DNA of 39,743 nucleotides from Elusimicrobiota bacterium. GTDB taxonomy: Bacteria; Elusimicrobiota; Elusimicrobia; UBA1565; UBA9628. Both the position numbers and the translations under genes were made by a program. Position 1 is the first letter of the stretch. Each line of letters starts with the position of its first letter. Under the pieces are notes generated by a model, which saw only the letters and a program-made list of their open reading frames with translations, was not told where the DNA came from and ran no database searches. Location: contig JAPLKL010000042.1 of NCBI GenBank assembly GCA_026388095.1, forward strand, positions 1 through 39,743, read 5' to 3'. This document shows, in pieces, positions 179 to 18,168 of this stretch.

Positions 179-1459
179 CTACTGCCGGGCCAGCTCGCGC
201 AGCTCGCTCTTAAAGCCCTGCTCGAAGCGCTCCACGTCGGCGATGACCCGGTTGACGGCCGTGAAGGTCCCGTTCTCCAGATGCTGCACCGCTGTGAAGT
301 GGAGCGTCTCGGCCGTGATCGGCTCCGAGGCGGCGAAGTCCGCCGCGAAGAGCTTGCTCTCGAGCTCGCGGGCCAGCTCGCCGCCCGTGAACTCCATGGA
401 GATCTCGTCCTGGGCCTCCTCGAGCATGGGCATCATGTTGGCCGAGCCCACGCTGGCCCAGGCCCCGTCCACGGACAGGGCCTTGGTGTGGGACATGCCG
501 GGCCGCTCGTAGACCTTGACCCCGGCGGCCAGCAGCCGCGCGTAGTGGTGCCGGGCGCCGGCCTGCGCGGAGAGGTGGACGTTGTTCTTGGAGAAGACCA
601 CGCGCACGTCCACGCCCCGGGCCGCGGCGCGCTCCAGGGCGGCGAAGACCCTGGAGTCCGTGAAGAAGGCGTTCTCCACGTAGACGTGGCCGCGGGCCGA
701 GTCGATCCGTGCGATGTTGGTGTCGCGGATGCCGTGGCTCTCGCCCCGGCTCGGGTCGGTGAGGTTGAGCCGCGCCACGGTCCCGGTCCAGCCCTCGCCG
801 CTGGCGGCCGGCGGCGAGGCCGGGCCGGGCCTGCCGTCCGACTCTTCCCAGCTGCCCGCGAAGGCCTGCTCCAGCAAGGAGACGATCTCCGGCCCCTCGA
901 CCACGATGCCAACGTCGTGCCAGCCGTACTGGGTGTCCCCGGGTTGATAGCCGGTGATGATGCCCTTGCGGCCGTCCGCGGCCACCAGCTTGCGATGGTC
1001 CCTCTGGATGGGACCGTTGCCGTGGCGGAAGCGGTTGGAGGGCAGGACCTGGACCCCGGCGGCGCGCATCGCGTCGATCATCCCGGGACCGTACGGGTCT
1101 GCGGGGGCGGAGCGGTTGGAGCTGGTGTGATAATAGAGGCTGTCGATGAGGACTCGGACCGCGACGCCGCGTTGGGCCGCTTCGCCGAGCGCCTGCGCGA
1201 CCTTCCAGCCCTGCTCGTCCCCGTAGAAGGACAGGAACTCGACGCTCAGGCTGCTGCGGGCCTCCCGGGCCAGCCCGATGAGCTGGTCCTGGAGCTGCGG
1301 GCCGTCGATGAACACCTCGGCCGAGCGCAGCGGCACATAGGGGGTGGCCCCGGCCAGCAGCGCCCCTGAAGCCCAAGCCCCTGAGAGCCCGGCGGCCAAG
1401 AGCCCGGCCCAGACGGCGCACAGCCTGGTCACGGAACCCGTCTTCTGATTGGCGGACAT
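179..1459 (-). CDS. exported phospholipase D-like protein (two HKD motifs)
   Basis: A 426-residue member of the phospholipase D superfamily, probably a phosphodiesterase or phosphatidyltransferase acting outside the cytoplasm. Two HKD motifs are visible: HRKLVAAD at about residues 155-162 (H155, K157, D162) and HTKALSVD at 324-331 (H324, K326, D331), the second followed by GSAN, as expected for the paired half-sites that form one PLD active site. Residues 1-40 hold a hydrophobic stretch that looks like a signal peptide or anchor. The start is set by AGGAGG just upstream of the ATG at 1459. The upstream M48 protease gene ends 15 bp away on the same strand, so the two are probably co-transcribed from the R1 leader. 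Substrate (cardiolipin synthesis, lipid or nucleic acid cleavage) cannot be told from sequence. Confidence 0.88.
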   Translation of the reverse strand: MSANQKTGSVTRLCAVWAGLLAAGLSGAWASGALLAGATPYVPLRSAEVFIDGPQLQDQLIGLAREARSSLSVEFLSFYGDEQGWKVAQALGEAAQRGVAVRVLIDSLYYHTSSNRSAPADPYGPGMIDAMRAAGVQVLPSNRFRHGNGPIQRDHRKLVAADGRKGIITGYQPGDTQYGWHDVGIVVEGPEIVSLLEQAFAGSWEESDGRPGPASPPAASGEGWTGTVARLNLTDPSRGESHGIRDTNIARIDSARGHVYVENAFFTDSRVFAALERAAARGVDVRVVFSKNNVHLSAQAGARHHYARLLAAGVKVYERPGMSHTKALSVDGAWASVGSANMMPMLEEAQDEISMEFTGGELARELESKLFAADFAASEPITAETLHFTAVQHLENGTFTAVNRVIADVERFEQGFKSELRELARQ

Positions 1460-1473
1460 GATGAGCCTCCTGT

Positions 1474-2514
1474 TCAGCGAGCCTGGGACGCTTCGGGCCG
1501 GTAGTACTGCTCCCGTATCCCGGGAAGCCAGCCTTGCATCTTCTCGATCCTGCGGGCCGTGATGGGATGGACCTGGAGGTGCTTCTCGATCCTGCCCATC
1601 AAGCCTGGCGGCACGGGACGGGAGGTCTCCTGGAGCAGCCGGCTCCAGAACTCGACCCCCCGGGCCGGGTCATAGCCGGCCTTGGCCATCAAGACCAGGC
1701 CGATGCGGTCCGCCTCCTCCTCCTGCAGCCTGCTAAAGCCCGCCAGCAGCGCGCTCTTGCCCTGACCGGTGCCGATGCCGTAGATGGACTGGGCCACGGT
1801 GACGATGCGCGCCGCGTTGATAGCGGCCGGGACCACGGCCGGGATGACCACGGCCAGCGCGGGGGGGACGACCGCTCCGGCCGCGCTGAGCCCGCTTTCG
1901 ACGAGGATCAGCTCGGTGATGCGCTCGCCCAGGTGGCGGGCGACGGCATGGGCCATCTCATGGCCCAGGATGGCGGCCAGGCCGTCGTCGCCTTCGCTGA
2001 TGGTGAGCATCCCGGAGAGGATCCCGACCTTGCCGCCGGGCAGGGCGAAGGCCTGGTCCTGGTCTCCGGCCACGCCGTAGGCGCTGGTCGGACCCACATC
2101 GACGAGCTGGACCTCCCAGGTCCAATCCGGCCGGCCGGCGGCCGCGATCATCCGGGCGCTCACGCGCTGGACCATGGCCAGGCGGTCGGGGTCCTGCGAG
2201 AGCTTGGAGCCGGAGAGGAGGCGCTGATAGAGGAGACGGCCGATGTCCTCTTCCCATTTCTCCCTGAGCAGGAGGGGGCGATGGCGGCCGGTATAGGGCG
2301 CGCCCAAAGTGTGCTGATGCCACCACTGCTCGAGCTCCCGGCGCCGCTGGCCTTCGGCATGGGCTCCGGCCAGGGCGGTCCGGATCCTGGCGCCGAAGTC
2401 GGCCTCTCCCAGCGCCCGGGCGGCTTCCAGCGGCTGGGCCCGGAGCCCGGGCAGGGCCGCGGCCAGCAGGCAGGCCGCCAGCAGACCGGCGTTCCTTCTT
2501 CTCGACTCTCTCAT
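1474..2514 (-). CDS. exported M48-family zinc metalloprotease
   Basis: A 346-residue M48 peptidase. The zinc motif HEMAH is at residues 185-189 and the third-ligand region EEEADR at about 265-270, the standard M48 arrangement. The N-terminus (residues 1-26, RRR then a Leu/Ala-rich core ending LRAQ) is a signal peptide, so the enzyme should act in the periplasm, in the style of BepA/LoiP-like proteases that handle outer-membrane proteins. I chose the ATG at 2514 because GGAGG lies 6 nt upstream and the signal peptide begins there; reading further upstream (to 2604) would run through a transcription terminator. The gene is directly preceded by the R1 leader RNA, whose terminator ends about 30 nt before the start codon, so expression is probably controlled by attenuation. 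The PLD-like gene follows 15 bp downstream. Confidence 0.88.
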   Translation of the reverse strand: MRESRRRNAGLLAACLLAAALPGLRAQPLEAARALGEADFGARIRTALAGAHAEGQRRRELEQWWHQHTLGAPYTGRHRPLLLREKWEEDIGRLLYQRLLSGSKLSQDPDRLAMVQRVSARMIAAAGRPDWTWEVQLVDVGPTSAYGVAGDQDQAFALPGGKVGILSGMLTISEGDDGLAAILGHEMAHAVARHLGERITELILVESGLSAAGAVVPPALAVVIPAVVPAAINAARIVTVAQSIYGIGTGQGKSALLAGFSRLQEEEADRIGLVLMAKAGYDPARGVEFWSRLLQETSRPVPPGLMGRIEKHLQVHPITARRIEKMQGWLPGIREQYYRPEASQAR

Positions 2515-2544: not shown

Positions 2545-2595
2545 AAAAAACGGGCTCCGCGGGATCAGGACGATATCCTGATTCCGCAAAGCCCG
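2545..2595 (-). terminator. intrinsic terminator inside the R1 leader
   Basis: Read on the minus strand, a stem of about 20 bp (base CGGGCT/AGCCCG, upper part TCAGGA/TCCTGA, one A-C mismatch and two wobble pairs) is followed by TTTTTTG. It lies between the R1 promoter and the M48 start codon, so it must be bypassed for the protease to be expressed. The first bases of the 5' arm are shared with the closing stem of the upstream RNA domain (2593-2597). Confidence 0.85.
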
Positions 2596-2702
2596 TGGGT
2601 TCATCCCGATATGGCGGGATCGCGTTTCACCCCGGGGCCGATCCCCCAGGTTACACGGTGCTGCCTGTCAAACTGCTGCCGACAGGGTCACGCCAAAGAA
2701 CT
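2545..2702 (-). ncRNA. R1: riboswitch-like structured leader RNA, copy 1
   Basis: A structured 5' leader of the M48 gene, matched by a second copy at 16881-17016. On the minus strand: a variable hairpin, then CACCGTG, a hairpin with a CCUGGGG/CCCCGGG stem and loop GAUCGG, the linker UGAAACGCG, a hairpin AUCCCG/CGGGAU with loop CCAUAU, then GAACCCACGGGC leading into a strong terminator. CCGUG (2654-2658) can pair with CACGG (2593-2597), closing both hairpins into one domain. That 3' strand overlaps the terminator base, so the two folds compete. The second copy differs by stem-preserving changes. I could not match it to cores I know (c-di-GMP-I/II, SAM, TPP, FMN, cobalamin, glycine, fluoride, T-box). 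Ligand unknown; a stand-alone RNA is the alternative. Confidence 0.65.
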
Positions 2703-2708
2703 GTCATG

Positions 2709-2737
2709 AGTGTAGCCCAAGGCCCTGAACAGGCCAA
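2709..2737 (-). promoter_or_regulatory. promoter of the R1 leader
   Basis: On the minus strand, TTGGCC (2732-2737), a 17-nt spacer and TACACT (2709-2714), placing the transcription start near 2702. The same TACACT box followed by CAGYTCTTT is found at the equivalent place before R2, which supports both as real promoters. Confidence 0.55.
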
Positions 2738-2759
2738 GGGCCGTCGGGCCCAGCCTGTC

Positions 2760-4271
2760 CTAGGTCTTTGGGCCCAGACCAGGCGCAAGAGCGCCGCCCA
2801 GCATGACCCGCGCGTTGTGGACGCAGTGGGGACAAGGCAGCATGAAGGCGGGAAACCGTCTGGTCCCGTACTGGTTGCGCTGCGGGTCGCCCCGCCAGAG
2901 CATGGCCCATTGCGAGACCTCGTCGCGCAGCGCGGGATGCTCCCGCAGGACCGCCAAGAGTTTCTTTTCCGCGCAGAATCTGTTGTCCGCGGAGCGCGCC
3001 TCGGAATCCGGCACGCGCTCCAGGCCTTCGGGGAGCGGGGTATCGGCCGGCAGGACTCGGAAGCGGCGCCCGCCTGCGGCATTGAGCCGCGCCTCCAGGC
3101 TGGCCTCAGCGCCCCCGATCACGGCCCGCAGCGTCTCGGGCACGCCGGAGAAGGCCACATACACGGTCCCATCCTTCATGACGAGAACTCCGATTATGCG
3201 CGCCACGCCCTCGAATTCGGGCTTGGTGATGTGGGGGATCTCCGCCTGGAGGGCGTCGCGGACCGCGAGCGCGGCTTGCCGCGCCGCAAGGCCGAACCGG
3301 AACGGGAAGGCCTTGCCGCCGCCGGAGCGGTGCAGGCGGGAGCTCCACTCCAGGCTCGCGGCGAATGCCTCGGCGGAAGAGAAGTCGAGCTTCTCGCCTG
3401 CAGGCAGGCTGGCATCATAGCGCGCCAACAGCTCTCGAGCGGCCTGGAGCACGCGGTCTTGCGCGGGGTCGGAGGCAGCCTGCTCCCGGACCGATCGGGC
3501 GGCCTCGGCAGGGCTCAGGCCCGGCTGATCGCGGAGCAGTCCGGCGTGCAGCCGTTCGCGCGCGGCCCGGAGTTCTTGGAATCCAGACTGGATATCCCGG
3601 CGCAGGTCCGCCAGAGGCCCCGGGGTTTCAAGAAGCTCTCGCGGGACCATGGCTTCGAGCTTGGCGAGTTGCCCGCGGAAATCAGAGGCCAGGATGATGT
3701 CTGAGGCGATCCCCGGGCTCGCTCTCCGCGGCGCGCCGACCGCGACGGCCTCCCGGCGTGGAGTCCCGTCGAAGAGCGCGGCGCCGGCGTCGGCCGCGTG
3801 CTCAAGGACCTTGTCCTCATCCGCCTTGCCGGCACCGGGCTTTTGAACACTGTCCTGGCCTGAAAAGTCCGCCTCGGTCAGGCCTGGAGTGAGTTCCGGC
3901 GCGCCGGCCGGCCCCGGCTTGGCCAAGACCTGCGCTTCGGCCGGCGGAGCGGACAAGACCGGGACCAAGCTCGGCGGCAAGACCGGGACATCCGTTTGCG
4001 CCGCCGCAGGCGTCAGCGGCTTGGGCGTCTGGGGCAAGGGCGAAGGGGTCGCCAGCGTCGGAGCCAGAAGTCCCGGCGACTTCAGGTCCAGCGAGCCGAT
4101 GGTCGTTGCCGAGCCGGAGACGTTGCTTCCGGCGCCGAGGCCCGGCGCCCCGACCGGATTCTGGAGGACCGGCACTTCGGCCACTTTCGGCCCGGCATAG
4201 GCCGGGCCGACGAGCCAGAGCGCGGCCCCGGCCAGCAGGCACGATCGCAAAGACATGATGGCGCGGCGCAT
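2760..4271 (-). CDS. exported protein with a C-terminal deaminase-like domain
   Basis: A 503-residue protein with a signal peptide (cut near AYA-GPK, residue 27), a long Pro/Ala/Leu low-complexity stretch to about residue 130, a helical, charged middle (190-320) and a C-terminal domain (about 320-503). That domain has a beta hairpin (GVLVMKDGTVYVAFSG, about 361-376), then FCAEKK (C433, E435) and LPCPHC (C480, C483). The CxE plus PCxxC pattern is the zinc and catalytic signature of the cytidine deaminase-like superfamily, to which many secreted bacterial deaminase toxins belong. I infer a zinc-binding deaminase fold; substrate is unknown. No immunity gene can be named next to it. The start may be the ATG at 4271 or 4256; a TATACT box ends 7 nt before 4271, so the mRNA may be leaderless. 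Confidence 0.6.
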   Translation of the reverse strand: MRRAIMSLRSCLLAGAALWLVGPAYAGPKVAEVPVLQNPVGAPGLGAGSNVSGSATTIGSLDLKSPGLLAPTLATPSPLPQTPKPLTPAAAQTDVPVLPPSLVPVLSAPPAEAQVLAKPGPAGAPELTPGLTEADFSGQDSVQKPGAGKADEDKVLEHAADAGAALFDGTPRREAVAVGAPRRASPGIASDIILASDFRGQLAKLEAMVPRELLETPGPLADLRRDIQSGFQELRAARERLHAGLLRDQPGLSPAEAARSVREQAASDPAQDRVLQAARELLARYDASLPAGEKLDFSSAEAFAASLEWSSRLHRSGGGKAFPFRFGLAARQAALAVRDALQAEIPHITKPEFEGVARIIGVLVMKDGTVYVAFSGVPETLRAVIGGAEASLEARLNAAGGRRFRVLPADTPLPEGLERVPDSEARSADNRFCAEKKLLAVLREHPALRDEVSQWAMLWRGDPQRNQYGTRRFPAFMLPCPHCVHNARVMLGGALAPGLGPKT

Positions 4272-16351: not shown

Positions 16352-16849
16352 TTAGCCTTGCGCTGAGGGCAGGACCAAAGCGGCGCTGCGTCCGCCCCGC
16401 TGGACCTCTTCCGTGGAAACCGGCCCCTGCCGCTGGAAGCTCCACACCGCGTAGTACTTCCCGCCGGGGCGCAGCTTGTGCTGGACGTCCTTGAACGTGA
16501 ACTCGTAGAACGGACCGACCGGCTGGGCGATGTCGATGTCGAAGATGACCGGGTCGGGGCGCAGGCCGCGGTCTTCCTTGACCGCGATGATGAGCCGCGT
16601 CGCGCCGCCGGTATACTTGCTCGCCCGCTGGTCCTGGAAGGCCAAGGTCACGCCATCGGCCTCTTCACGGAACATGACCAGCTCCAGACCCGCGGGCGCG
16701 GGTGCGGGGGGGAGGCCGTCCATGACCGCGCGCATGTCGATGCCGCGGTCGAAGTCCTGCCCGGACGGCGGCTGGGCCGACGACGGGGCGGCCAGCAGTG
16801 CGGCGATGGCGGCTGAGCATACGGCGGCGGCTCTCCCGAGCTTTTTCAT
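16352..16849 (-). CDS. small exported beta-rich protein downstream of R2
   Basis: A 165-residue protein: signal peptide (ends APSSAQ, about residue 27), then beta-rich sequence (GLELVMFREEADGVTLAFQD, LIIAVKEDRGLRPDPVIFDI, YEFTFKDVQHKLRPGGKYYA, VWSFQRQG) with the spacing of an immunoglobulin-like or fibronectin-type fold. No catalytic residues are evident and I cannot name a family. Two ATGs 6 nt apart exist; AAGGAG fits the second (16849) best. It is preceded by the R2 leader and its terminator, the same arrangement as for the M48 protease, so both should be in one regulon. It converges with the membrane protein gene (3-bp gap). Confidence 0.7.
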   Translation of the reverse strand: MKKLGRAAAVCSAAIAALLAAPSSAQPPSGQDFDRGIDMRAVMDGLPPAPAPAGLELVMFREEADGVTLAFQDQRASKYTGGATRLIIAVKEDRGLRPDPVIFDIDIAQPVGPFYEFTFKDVQHKLRPGGKYYAVWSFQRQGPVSTEEVQRGGRSAALVLPSAQG

Positions 16850-16880: not shown

Positions 16881-16931
16881 ATAAAAGAGGGCTCCCTAGG
16901 ATCAGGACGAAATCCTGATCCTACGAAGCCC
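16881..16931 (-). terminator. intrinsic terminator inside the R2 leader
   Basis: On the minus strand a 19-position stem with one mismatch (base GGGCTTC/GGGAGCCC side, top GGATCAGGA/TCCTGATCC) followed by TCTTTTATTT. Relative to R1, several stem bases change on both arms (GCGG/CCGC to GTAG/CTAG), keeping the pairing. Confidence 0.85.
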
Positions 16932-17016
16932 GTGGGTTCATCCCGTTATGGCGGGATCGCATTTCAGCCCGGGGCCGATCCCCCGGGTCGCACGGTGAGA
17001 CTGATCCGAAAGAGCT
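16881..17016 (-). ncRNA. R2: riboswitch-like structured leader RNA, copy 2
   Basis: Second copy of the R1 leader, before the 165-residue exported protein. Shared core: CAGCTCTTT near the start, CACCGTG, hairpin CCCGGGG/CCCCGGG with loop GAUCGG, UGAAAUGCG, hairpin AUCCCG/CGGGAU with loop CCAUAA, GAACCCACGGGC and the terminator. The region before CACCGTG is shorter than in R1 and forms its own hairpin (GATCC/GGATC). CCGUG (16991-16995) pairs with CACGG (16930-16934), overlapping the terminator base at 16930-16931. The 5' arm of the first hairpin (GGGAUCG) can also pair with CGAUCCC in the next one, so alternate folds are possible. Confidence 0.65.
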
Positions 17017-17022
17017 GGGATC

Positions 17023-17028
17023 AGTGTA
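17023..17028 (-). promoter_or_regulatory. -10 box of the R2 leader
   Basis: TACACT on the minus strand, identical to the -10 box of R1 and at the same distance from the shared CAGYTCTTT. The -35 region is poor (TGGCAG at a 17-nt spacing). Confidence 0.5.
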
Positions 17029-17104
17029 GTGCGGAGGGCCCAGGACTGCCAGGGACTTCGGGCCCACGGGGCGATGGGTCCAAGGGCCTAGGGCCACCCC
17101 CAAA

Positions 17105-17169
17105 AAGCAAGCCCGTCCCCCCTCATAGGGGGGGACGGGCTGCTTCGCGTCGCTGCGCGACGCGAAGTC
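17105..17169 (-). terminator. double-hairpin terminator of fba
   Basis: On the minus strand, directly after the fba stop: first a perfect hairpin CTTCGCGTCGC-GCA-GCGACGCGAAG, then a long stem AGCCCGTCCCCCC/GGGGGGACGGGCT followed by TGCTTTTTGG. The second element is a classical intrinsic terminator, separating fba from the R2 unit downstream. Confidence 0.85.
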
Positions 17170-18168
17170 TTAACAGCGGCCGGCGGAGCCGAGGACCTTC
17201 TCGTTCTTGTCCATGTACATCTTGACCAGCGCCTCGCGGGCCGGGCCGAGGTACTTGCGCGGGTCGAACTCGCCGGGCTTCTCCGCGAAGACCTTGCGGA
17301 TCGCAGCGGTCATGACCAGGCGGCCGTCCGAGTCGATGTTGATCTTGCACACCGCGGACTTGGCGGCCTTGCGCAGCTGCTCTTCCGGTATGCCGGCGGT
17401 CCCGTCCATCTTGCCGCCGTACTTGTTGATCAGCGCGATGGATTCAGGAGGGACCGAGGAGGAGCCGTGCAGGACGATGGGGAAGCCCGGGATGCGCTTC
17501 TCGCAGGCTTCCAGGATGTCGAAGCGCAGGGGCGGCACGGACTCGCCCGGCTTGAGCTTGAACTTGTAGGCCCCGTGGCTGGTGCCGATGGAGATGGCCA
17601 GCGAGTCCACGCCGGTCTGCTTGACGAAGTCCTCCACGTCCTTGGGGTCGGTGTAGTGCGACTTCTCGGCCGAGACCTCGTCCTCGATGCCGGCCAGCAC
17701 GCCCAGCTCGCCTTCTACGGTCACGTCGCGCGGGTGCGCGTACTCCACGACCTTCTTGGTCAGGGCCACGTTCTCCGCGAAGGGCTTGGAGGAGGCGTCG
17801 ATCATGACCGAGGAGAAGCCCATGTCGATGCAGGACTTGCAGAGCTCGAAGCTGTCGCCGTGGTCGAGGTGCAGGGCCACGGGCACGGGCGCCCCCATCT
17901 CCTTCATCATCTCGATGGCGCCGCGGCCCATCCAGCGCAGCAGCGTGGCGTTGGCGTAGTCGCGCGCGCCCTTGGAGACCTGCAGGATGACCGGCGAGCG
18001 GCTCTTCTGGCAGGCGGTGATGATGGCCTGGAGCTGCTCCATGTTGTTGAAGTTGTAGGCGGGGACCGCGTAGCCTTTCTGCATCGCGTCCTTGAACATC
18101 TCCCGCGTGTTGACGAAGCCCAGCTCCTTGTAAGAGACCGTCTTGGCGTCGGCGACCATGTTGGCCAT
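17170..18168 (-). CDS. fba: class II fructose-bisphosphate aldolase
   Basis: A 332-residue zinc-dependent aldolase that interconverts fructose 1,6-bisphosphate with glyceraldehyde 3-phosphate and dihydroxyacetone phosphate in glycolysis and gluconeogenesis. Typical motifs: VPAYNFNNMEQLQAI near the N-terminus, HLDHGD (100-105; Asp102 catalytic, His103 zinc), VTVEGELGVLAGIEDEV (149-165), IGTSHGAYK (His198) and LHGSSSVP (His234), then the phosphate-binding KINIDSDGRL. Length is normal for the long class II type. The ATG at 18168 has AGGAGG 5 nt upstream. It is transcribed divergently from the SseB-like gene and ends in a strong terminator, so it is monocistronic. Confidence 0.95.
   Translation of the reverse strand: MANMVADAKTVSYKELGFVNTREMFKDAMQKGYAVPAYNFNNMEQLQAIITACQKSRSPVILQVSKGARDYANATLLRWMGRGAIEMMKEMGAPVPVALHLDHGDSFELCKSCIDMGFSSVMIDASSKPFAENVALTKKVVEYAHPRDVTVEGELGVLAGIEDEVSAEKSHYTDPKDVEDFVKQTGVDSLAISIGTSHGAYKFKLKPGESVPPLRFDILEACEKRIPGFPIVLHGSSSVPPESIALINKYGGKMDGTAGIPEEQLRKAAKSAVCKINIDSDGRLVMTAAIRKVFAEKPGEFDPRKYLGPAREALVKMYMDKNEKVLGSAGRC

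What the first reader, a model, noticed from the sequence alone, without database searches (positions are those of the whole stretch)
2545..2737. Orphan riboswitch-like leader (R1) in front of an exported M48 protease, with a second copy in the window
Two regions 14 kb apart share a compact RNA plan: same -10 box, CAGYTCTTT, CACCGTG, a hairpin with loop GAUCGG, UGAAAYGCG, a hairpin AUCCCG/CGGGAU, GAACCCACGGGC, and a strong intrinsic terminator before the start codon. Loops and linkers are almost invariant while the upstream hairpin and terminator stem vary with pairing kept, which is how structured RNAs evolve. I cannot match the core to the riboswitch families I know.
Basis: partly seen in the sequence, partly recalled or inferred. 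Interest (0 to 1): 0.85.

Follow-up and report, generated by a model that had tools for sequence, protein, structure and literature searches.

The report
Variant deoxyguanosine-type riboswitch in Elusimicrobiota
Two leader RNAs in this bacterial genome are altered relatives of a known RNA switch that senses 2'-deoxyguanosine, a DNA breakdown product; they carry a rebuilt ligand pocket shared by a small family of such RNAs in one bacterial phylum, and probably turn on exported proteins (in one case a protease and a phospholipase D-like enzyme) when a guanine nucleoside is present.

Summary
Both copies (window 2591-2661 and 16928-16998, minus strand) match Rfam RF03165 (2dG-II purine riboswitch) over the full model at E=1e-11 and 1e-7, but at 49 and 37 bits, under the 60-bit cut-off, so a routine scan misses them. 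They are not canonical 2'-dG-II either. With six more copies found in 341 Elusimicrobiota genomes they form a clade whose J2/3 pocket reads (U)GAAAYGCG instead of AUCCAC: C50A, A52G, U49A, usually one inserted G. C74, the junction-closing G-C pair of P1, J3/1 length and the L2-L3 G-C contacts are kept. The 22-52 pair changes from U-A to U-G or C-G (2'-dG-I has C31/G59). Covariation supports the fold. In 7 of 8 copies the 3' strand of P1 is also the 5' arm of an intrinsic terminator, so ligand binding should switch expression ON. Copy 1 heads an M48 protease plus PLD operon, and PLD is a published 2'-dG-II target; both copies share a tandem palindromic promoter element with canonical 2'-dG-II genes. 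Most likely ligand: 2'-deoxyguanosine or a related guanine nucleoside; changed specificity is not excluded. An unannotated variant of a known riboswitch kind.

The parts
2738..2775 (-). tandem palindromes RGGYCNNNNGNCCY, 24 bp apart, upstream of promoter of copy 1
   Evidence: zero mismatches; 17-fold enriched upstream of own-order 2'-dG-II-type riboswitches
2709..2714 (-). -10 box TACACT of copy 1
   Evidence: sequence, (inferred promoter)
2695..2703 (-). CAGTTCTTT at or next to the expected transcription start, function unknown
2654..2658 (-). P1 5' strand CCGUG (copy 1)
2591..2661 (-). aptamer copy 1: three-way junction, RF03165-related variant
   Evidence: searches (49.2 bits, E 1.3e-11; 98.2 bits with R1), fold
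2631..2650 (-). P2-L2 (CCUGGGG-GAUCGG-CCCCGGG)
2621..2630 (-). J2/3 GUGAAACGCG: altered ligand pocket (A49, A50, C51, G52, inserted G)
2603..2620 (-). P3-L3 (AUCCCG-CCAUAU-CGGGAU); L3 CC contacts L2 GG
2593..2602 (-). J3/1 GAACC (C74 = last C, 2598) and P1 3' strand CACGG (2597-2593)
2545..2596 (-). intrinsic terminator; its 5' arm ACGGGC overlaps the P1 3' strand (switch)
1474..2514 (-). exported M48 metalloprotease gene controlled by copy 1
   Evidence: PF01435, E 4e-27; N-terminal signal-like sequence seen
179..1459 (-). PLD-family protein, second gene of the operon (14-bp gap)
   Evidence: PF13091, E 1.8e-30
17052..17089 (-). tandem palindromes upstream of copy 2
17023..17028 (-). -10 box TACACT of copy 2
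17009..17017 (-). CAGCTCTTT element of copy 2
16928..16998 (-). aptamer copy 2, same variant (C22, U51, G52; J2/3 CUGAAAUGCG 16967-16958)
   Evidence: 37.5 bits, E 9.5e-8; 97.5 bits with R1
16881..16931 (-). terminator of copy 2; 5' arm GGGC overlaps P1 3' strand
16352..16849 (-). small exported protein of unknown family controlled by copy 2; a 74% identical homologue in G001 is also preceded by the variant RNA

Best explanation
A transcription-terminating riboswitch of the purine three-way-junction fold, derived from the 2'-dG-II lineage but with a rebuilt J2/3 pocket. By default the nascent RNA folds the terminator, whose 5' arm uses the 3' strand of P1, and transcription stops. When a guanine nucleoside, most likely 2'-deoxyguanosine released from digested DNA, pairs with C74 and docks against Y51 and the 22-52 pair, P1 is stabilised, the terminator cannot form, and the downstream exported genes are transcribed (copy 1: M48 protease and PLD; copy 2: a small exported protein). 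Shown by computation: fold, covariation, pocket changes, overlap of P1 and terminator, clade, gene neighbourhood. Inferred: ligand identity, direction of switching in vivo, biological role (feedback induction of secreted macromolecule-degrading enzymes).
For: RF03165 is the only meaningful Rfam match and aligns end to end in all eight copies, 37.5-58.7 bits. A model built from four copies recovers eight at 78-98 bits, against 67.5 or less for canonical elements. The clade persists with J2/3 columns left out (8/8 variants together, support 0.88). C74, the G-C junction pair, J3/1 length and L2-L3 G-C contacts are kept. Covariation: 16 of 21 pairs with both-sided changes in 63 sequences, 0/500 shuffles; 3 pairs within the variants alone. 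P1'/terminator overlap in 7/8 variants (0.2 expected) and 37/54 canonical (2.2 expected). PLD, ComEC, endonuclease I and a receiver domain are the published 2'-dG-II targets (PMC8872408); PLD, ComEC-like and receiver-domain genes occur behind canonical elements in this phylum, and PLD is in the copy 1 operon. Canonical and variant promoters share the 24-bp tandem palindrome.
Against: No binding data. The two pocket positions that changed in all copies (50, 52) line the ligand site, so the specificity may have moved. Two of eight copies, window copy 2 among them, have U51; C51U costs 2'-dG-II 18-fold in affinity (PMC8872408). One copy (G044) has no terminator. M48 and the small exported proteins are not classical purine genes.
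Confidence: 0.72

Rival explanations
1. The variant has switched ligand: it senses another guanine-type compound (guanosine, guanine, a nucleotide or a modified deoxyguanosine) while neighbouring canonical copies sense 2'-dG, giving the cell two different readouts in one regulon.
For: Six of seven genomes with the variant also keep at least two canonical elements, so there is room for specialisation; J2/3 changes at 49, 50, 52 and an insertion, the region where xanthine-II, guanine-II and 2'-dG-III differ from guanine-I (PMC9295807); mixed C/U at position 51.
Against: C74 is kept, so the base-pairing face should still be guanine; the C22-G52/C51 combination occurs in validated 2'-dG-I (PMC8872408); the copy 1 operon contains a PLD gene as canonical elements do.
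Confidence: 0.35
2. Plain divergent 2'-dG-II copies with neutral drift in J2/3 and unchanged function, falling below an Rfam threshold only.
For: Same scaffold and similar gene types; significant RF03165 E-values.
Against: The changes are not random: A49, A50 and G52 in 8/8 variants and in none of 54 genuine canonical copies (the single exception is a spurious antisense match), in genomes of three families, with paired change at 22-52.
Confidence: 0.1
3. A decaying or ligand-independent aptamer: G52 could pair with C74 and the leader now acts as a constitutive attenuator or simple terminator.
For: No ligand is demonstrated; the copy 1 leader folds into the terminator state by a wide margin.
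Against: Junction residues are highly conserved across three families while P1, P2 and P3 show compensatory changes, as expected under selection for binding.
Confidence: 0.05

Closest known systems
2'-dG-II riboswitch (Rfam RF03165)
   Same: three-way junction; G-C closing pair of P1; J3/1 of the same length; C74; L2-L3 G-C contacts; C51 in 6/8; ON-type terminator overlap; PLD among target genes
   Different: J2/3 GAAAYGCG instead of AUCCAC (U49A, C50A, A52G, usually +1 nt); 22-52 pair U-G or C-G instead of U-A; scores 37-59 bits, under the 60-bit cut-off
2'-dG-I riboswitch (Mesoplasma florum)
   Same: 22-52 is C-G in 2 of 8 variants (U-G in the rest), C51 in 6/8, C74; compare C31, C58, G59, C80 in 2'-dG-I (PMC8872408)
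   Different: closing pair of P1 is G-C not A-U; lengthened J3/1 present; distant phylum and different target genes
guanine-I / guanine-II riboswitches
   Same: fold, C74; window copy 2 and L098 have U51; guanine-II also has a one-nt J2/3 insertion and is predicted ON (PMC9295807)
   Different: positions 50, 52 and P1 closing pair; Firmicutes; purine salvage genes
2'-dG-III and xanthine-II (PMC9295807)
   Same: natural pocket variants of the same fold, predicted ON switches
   Different: xanthine-II has G51 and a J3/1 insertion relative to guanine-I; both are narrowly Firmicutes with nucleoside hydrolase or purine degradation genes

Membership tests
2'-dG-II (RF03165) | covariance-model score at or above the gathering cut-off (60 bits) | tested here: not met
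   37.5-58.7 bits in all eight copies, though E 1e-7 to 1e-12
2'-dG-II (RF03165) | three-way junction with L2-L3 G-C contacts | tested here: met
   99% of cells paired; GG/CC in 8/8
2'-dG-II (RF03165) | G-C pair closing P1 at the junction and lengthened J3/1 | tested here: met
   definition from PMC8872408
2'-dG-II (RF03165) | C74 that pairs with the guanine base | tested here: met
   C in 8/8
2'-dG-II (RF03165) | C51 (nucleoside selectivity) | tested here: inconclusive
   C in 6/8 (window copy 1), U in window copy 2 and L098
2'-dG-II (RF03165) | J2/3 core AUCCAC with U22-A52 | tested here: not met
   GAAAYGCG (UUAACGCG in L077), 22-52 = U-G or C-G
2'-dG-II (RF03165) | selective binding of 2'-deoxyguanosine | not testable with these tools
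   needs in-line probing or ITC
2'-dG-I | C22, C51, G52, C74 | tested here: inconclusive
   all four together only in L066; win1 has U22; win2 has C22 but U51
2'-dG-I | A-U pair closing P1 at the junction | tested here: not met
   G-C in 8/8
guanine-I | U22, U51, C74 with A52 | tested here: not met
   G52 in 8/8
xanthine-II | G51 and J3/1 insertion relative to guanine-I | tested here: not met
   position 51 is C or U

The most novel reading that the evidence does not exclude
The clade is a new riboswitch class: a 2'-dG-II-derived aptamer whose rebuilt J2/3 gives a ligand other than 2'-dG (for instance guanosine, guanine or a modified or phosphorylated guanine nucleoside), working beside canonical 2'-dG-II switches in one regulon of secreted degradative enzymes.
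Probability: 0.35. Interest if true: 0.7.

Novelty: new variant of a known kind. Interest (0 to 1): 0.52.

Why it matters
Purine riboswitches are the model for how RNA pockets change specificity. Here is a natural, apparently monophyletic pocket variant on a 2'-dG-II scaffold that has acquired a 2'-dG-I-like G at position 52, in genomes that mostly retain canonical paralogues: a ready-made experiment on RNA pocket evolution. It also shows that 2'-dG-II-type switches are common in Elusimicrobiota, and suggests that these bacteria induce exported nucleases, proteases and PLD-family enzymes when they sense products of nucleic-acid digestion.

Tried and rejected
Rfam at gathering threshold finds nothing: misleading, because the hits lie below the cut-off. 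GAACCCACGGGC as a marker: one-mismatch hits elsewhere in the genome look like chance. Variant in other phyla: an exact-pattern scan of 84,980 species gave six stretches, four Elusimicrobiota copies already known and two (L107 rumen MAG, L111 Halobacteriales) that the covariance model does not support; none in viral contigs. Gene-swap test (are homologues of the variant-controlled genes preceded by canonical 2'-dG-II elsewhere?): among 60 loci only the already known G001 copy showed an RNA, so no support either way. The two groups of small exported proteins (win2/L077 and L095-L097) are not convincingly homologous. The founding 2'-dG-II papers (Weinberg 2017; Matyjasik and Batey 2019) are not held, so prior mention of this J2/3 variant there cannot be ruled out.

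Full report
Observation. CAGYTCTTT occurs twice in the window, at the two copies, with 0.26 expected. The window is a whole contig (39,743 bases); the phylum, Elusimicrobiota, is read from the named records that hold the same RNA.

What it is. A gathering-threshold Rfam scan is empty, but a permissive scan of each segment gives one meaningful match, RF03165 2dG-II, full length, 49.2 bits (E 1.3e-11) for copy 1 and 37.5 bits (E 9.5e-8) for copy 2; the cut-off is 60. RF03165 itself is frequent in the relatives: 31 of 57 genomes, and six places in the own genome, three of them at 77-82 bits. So the RNA is a divergent relative of a known family, not an orphan.

The variant clade. Aligning the low-scoring hits showed a second J2/3 type shared by both window copies and copies in G001 and G044. 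A covariance model from these four searched over 341 genomes of the phylum gave eight copies at 78-98 bits; canonical elements reach at most 67.5. The eight lie in seven genomes of three families (G000 twice, G001, G044, G187, G198, G211, G213). In 63 aligned sequences the columns that separate variants from canonical copies are, in xpt numbering, 49 (U to A), 50 (C to A), 52 (A to G) and an inserted G (absent only in G001); position 51 is C in six and U in two. Residues 50-52 contribute to ligand binding in 2'-dG-II (PMC8872408). With J2/3 left out the eight still group together (support 0.88), so this looks like one lineage and not repeated drift; the support is moderate, as expected for 70 nt.

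Structure. In 63 sequences 98.6% of cells pair, 16 of 21 pairs have changes on both sides, and no shuffle reaches the covariation score. Within the eight variants 99.4% pair and three pairs have both-sided changes, in P1, P2 and P3. The tertiary 22-52 pair goes from U-A (54) to U-G (6) or C-G (2). 2'-dG-I has C31, C58, G59, C80 at 22, 51, 52, 74 (PMC8872408), so the variant approaches the 2'-dG-I pocket on a 2'-dG-II scaffold: the G-C closing pair of P1 and the long J3/1 are 2'-dG-II features and are kept. Folding energies of the aptamers alone are unremarkable (z about -1.3), but the three-way junction is the predicted fold.

Switch. In copy 1 the segment ACGGGC is both P1 3' strand and 5' arm of a terminator ending in six U; copy 2 uses GGGC. 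The same overlap is found in 7/8 variants and 37/54 canonical copies, with 0.2 and 2.2 expected when the downstream DNA is shuffled. In L098 a G-to-A change in the P1 3' strand is matched by U both in the P1 5' strand and in the terminator 3' arm. Ligand binding should therefore prevent termination. With the terminator present the minimum-energy fold is the terminated state. This direction is inferred from anatomy, not measured.

Genes. Copy 1 precedes an exported M48 protease and, 14 bp on, a PLD-family protein. Copy 2 precedes a 165-aa exported protein without Pfam match; its 74% identical homologue in G001 also has the variant RNA. [quoted passage not shown] Canonical copies examined here precede PLD, ComEC-like hydrolases, a receiver domain, proteases and many unknown exported proteins. 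In the own order both types share a tandem palindrome RGGYCNNNNGNCCY, 24 bp apart, upstream: 6.6 per kb against 0.38 per kb overall. Genome-wide, clean tandem sites also precede endonuclease I, two subtilases, a peptidoglycan amidase, a barnase-like ribonuclease and another PLD protein. The riboswitch genes thus seem to belong to a regulon of secreted degradative enzymes; sensing a deoxynucleoside from digested DNA would be sensible feedback. That role is inference.

Ligand. C74 argues for a guanine base; C51 and C/U22-G52 for a nucleoside as in 2'-dG-I. U51 in window copy 2, the A50/G52 pocket and coexistence with canonical paralogues in six of seven genomes leave room for a changed or tuned specificity. 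I put about 0.6 on 2'-dG as the main ligand and 0.35 on another guanine compound.

Verdict. Not an orphan class, and not filed as a member of 2'-dG-II (two tested features fail), but an unannotated, covariation-supported, narrowly distributed pocket variant of the 2'-dG-II lineage. The literature search found no description of it, with the caveat that the two founding 2'-dG-II papers could not be read.

Noticed in passing
window 2738-2775 and 17052-17089; own genome, about 20 clean sites: Tandem palindromes RGGYCNNNNGNCCY exactly 24 bp apart upstream of promoters; 17-fold enriched before 2'-dG-II-type riboswitches in the order, also before genes for endonuclease I, subtilases, an amidase, a ribonuclease and a PLD protein: a probable unknown regulator of a secreted-enzyme regulon.
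   Followed up: partly
window 2695-2703 and 17009-17017: CAGYTCTTT at or next to the expected transcription start of both window copies and G001, with similar strings in G044 and G187; canonical copies in this genome lack it. Function unknown.
   Followed up: partly
L058 1491-1560 and 1580-3445: A canonical-type 2'-dG-II element in the same genome precedes an S41 protease that matches the CPAF family model (NF033424, 636 bits).
   Followed up: no
L101, L103, L104, L105 (first gene after the element): Canonical 2'-dG-II elements in another family precede very short (62-66 aa) exported peptides of one related group.
   Followed up: no
relatives: Canonical 2'-dG-II riboswitches are common in Elusimicrobiota (up to nine matches per genome), although a held paper places the class in Bacteroidetes (PMC8872408).
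   Followed up: partly
window 17105-17145: Strong GC-rich hairpin followed by a T-run, probably the terminator of the upstream class II fructose-bisphosphate aldolase gene (17170-18168).
   Followed up: no
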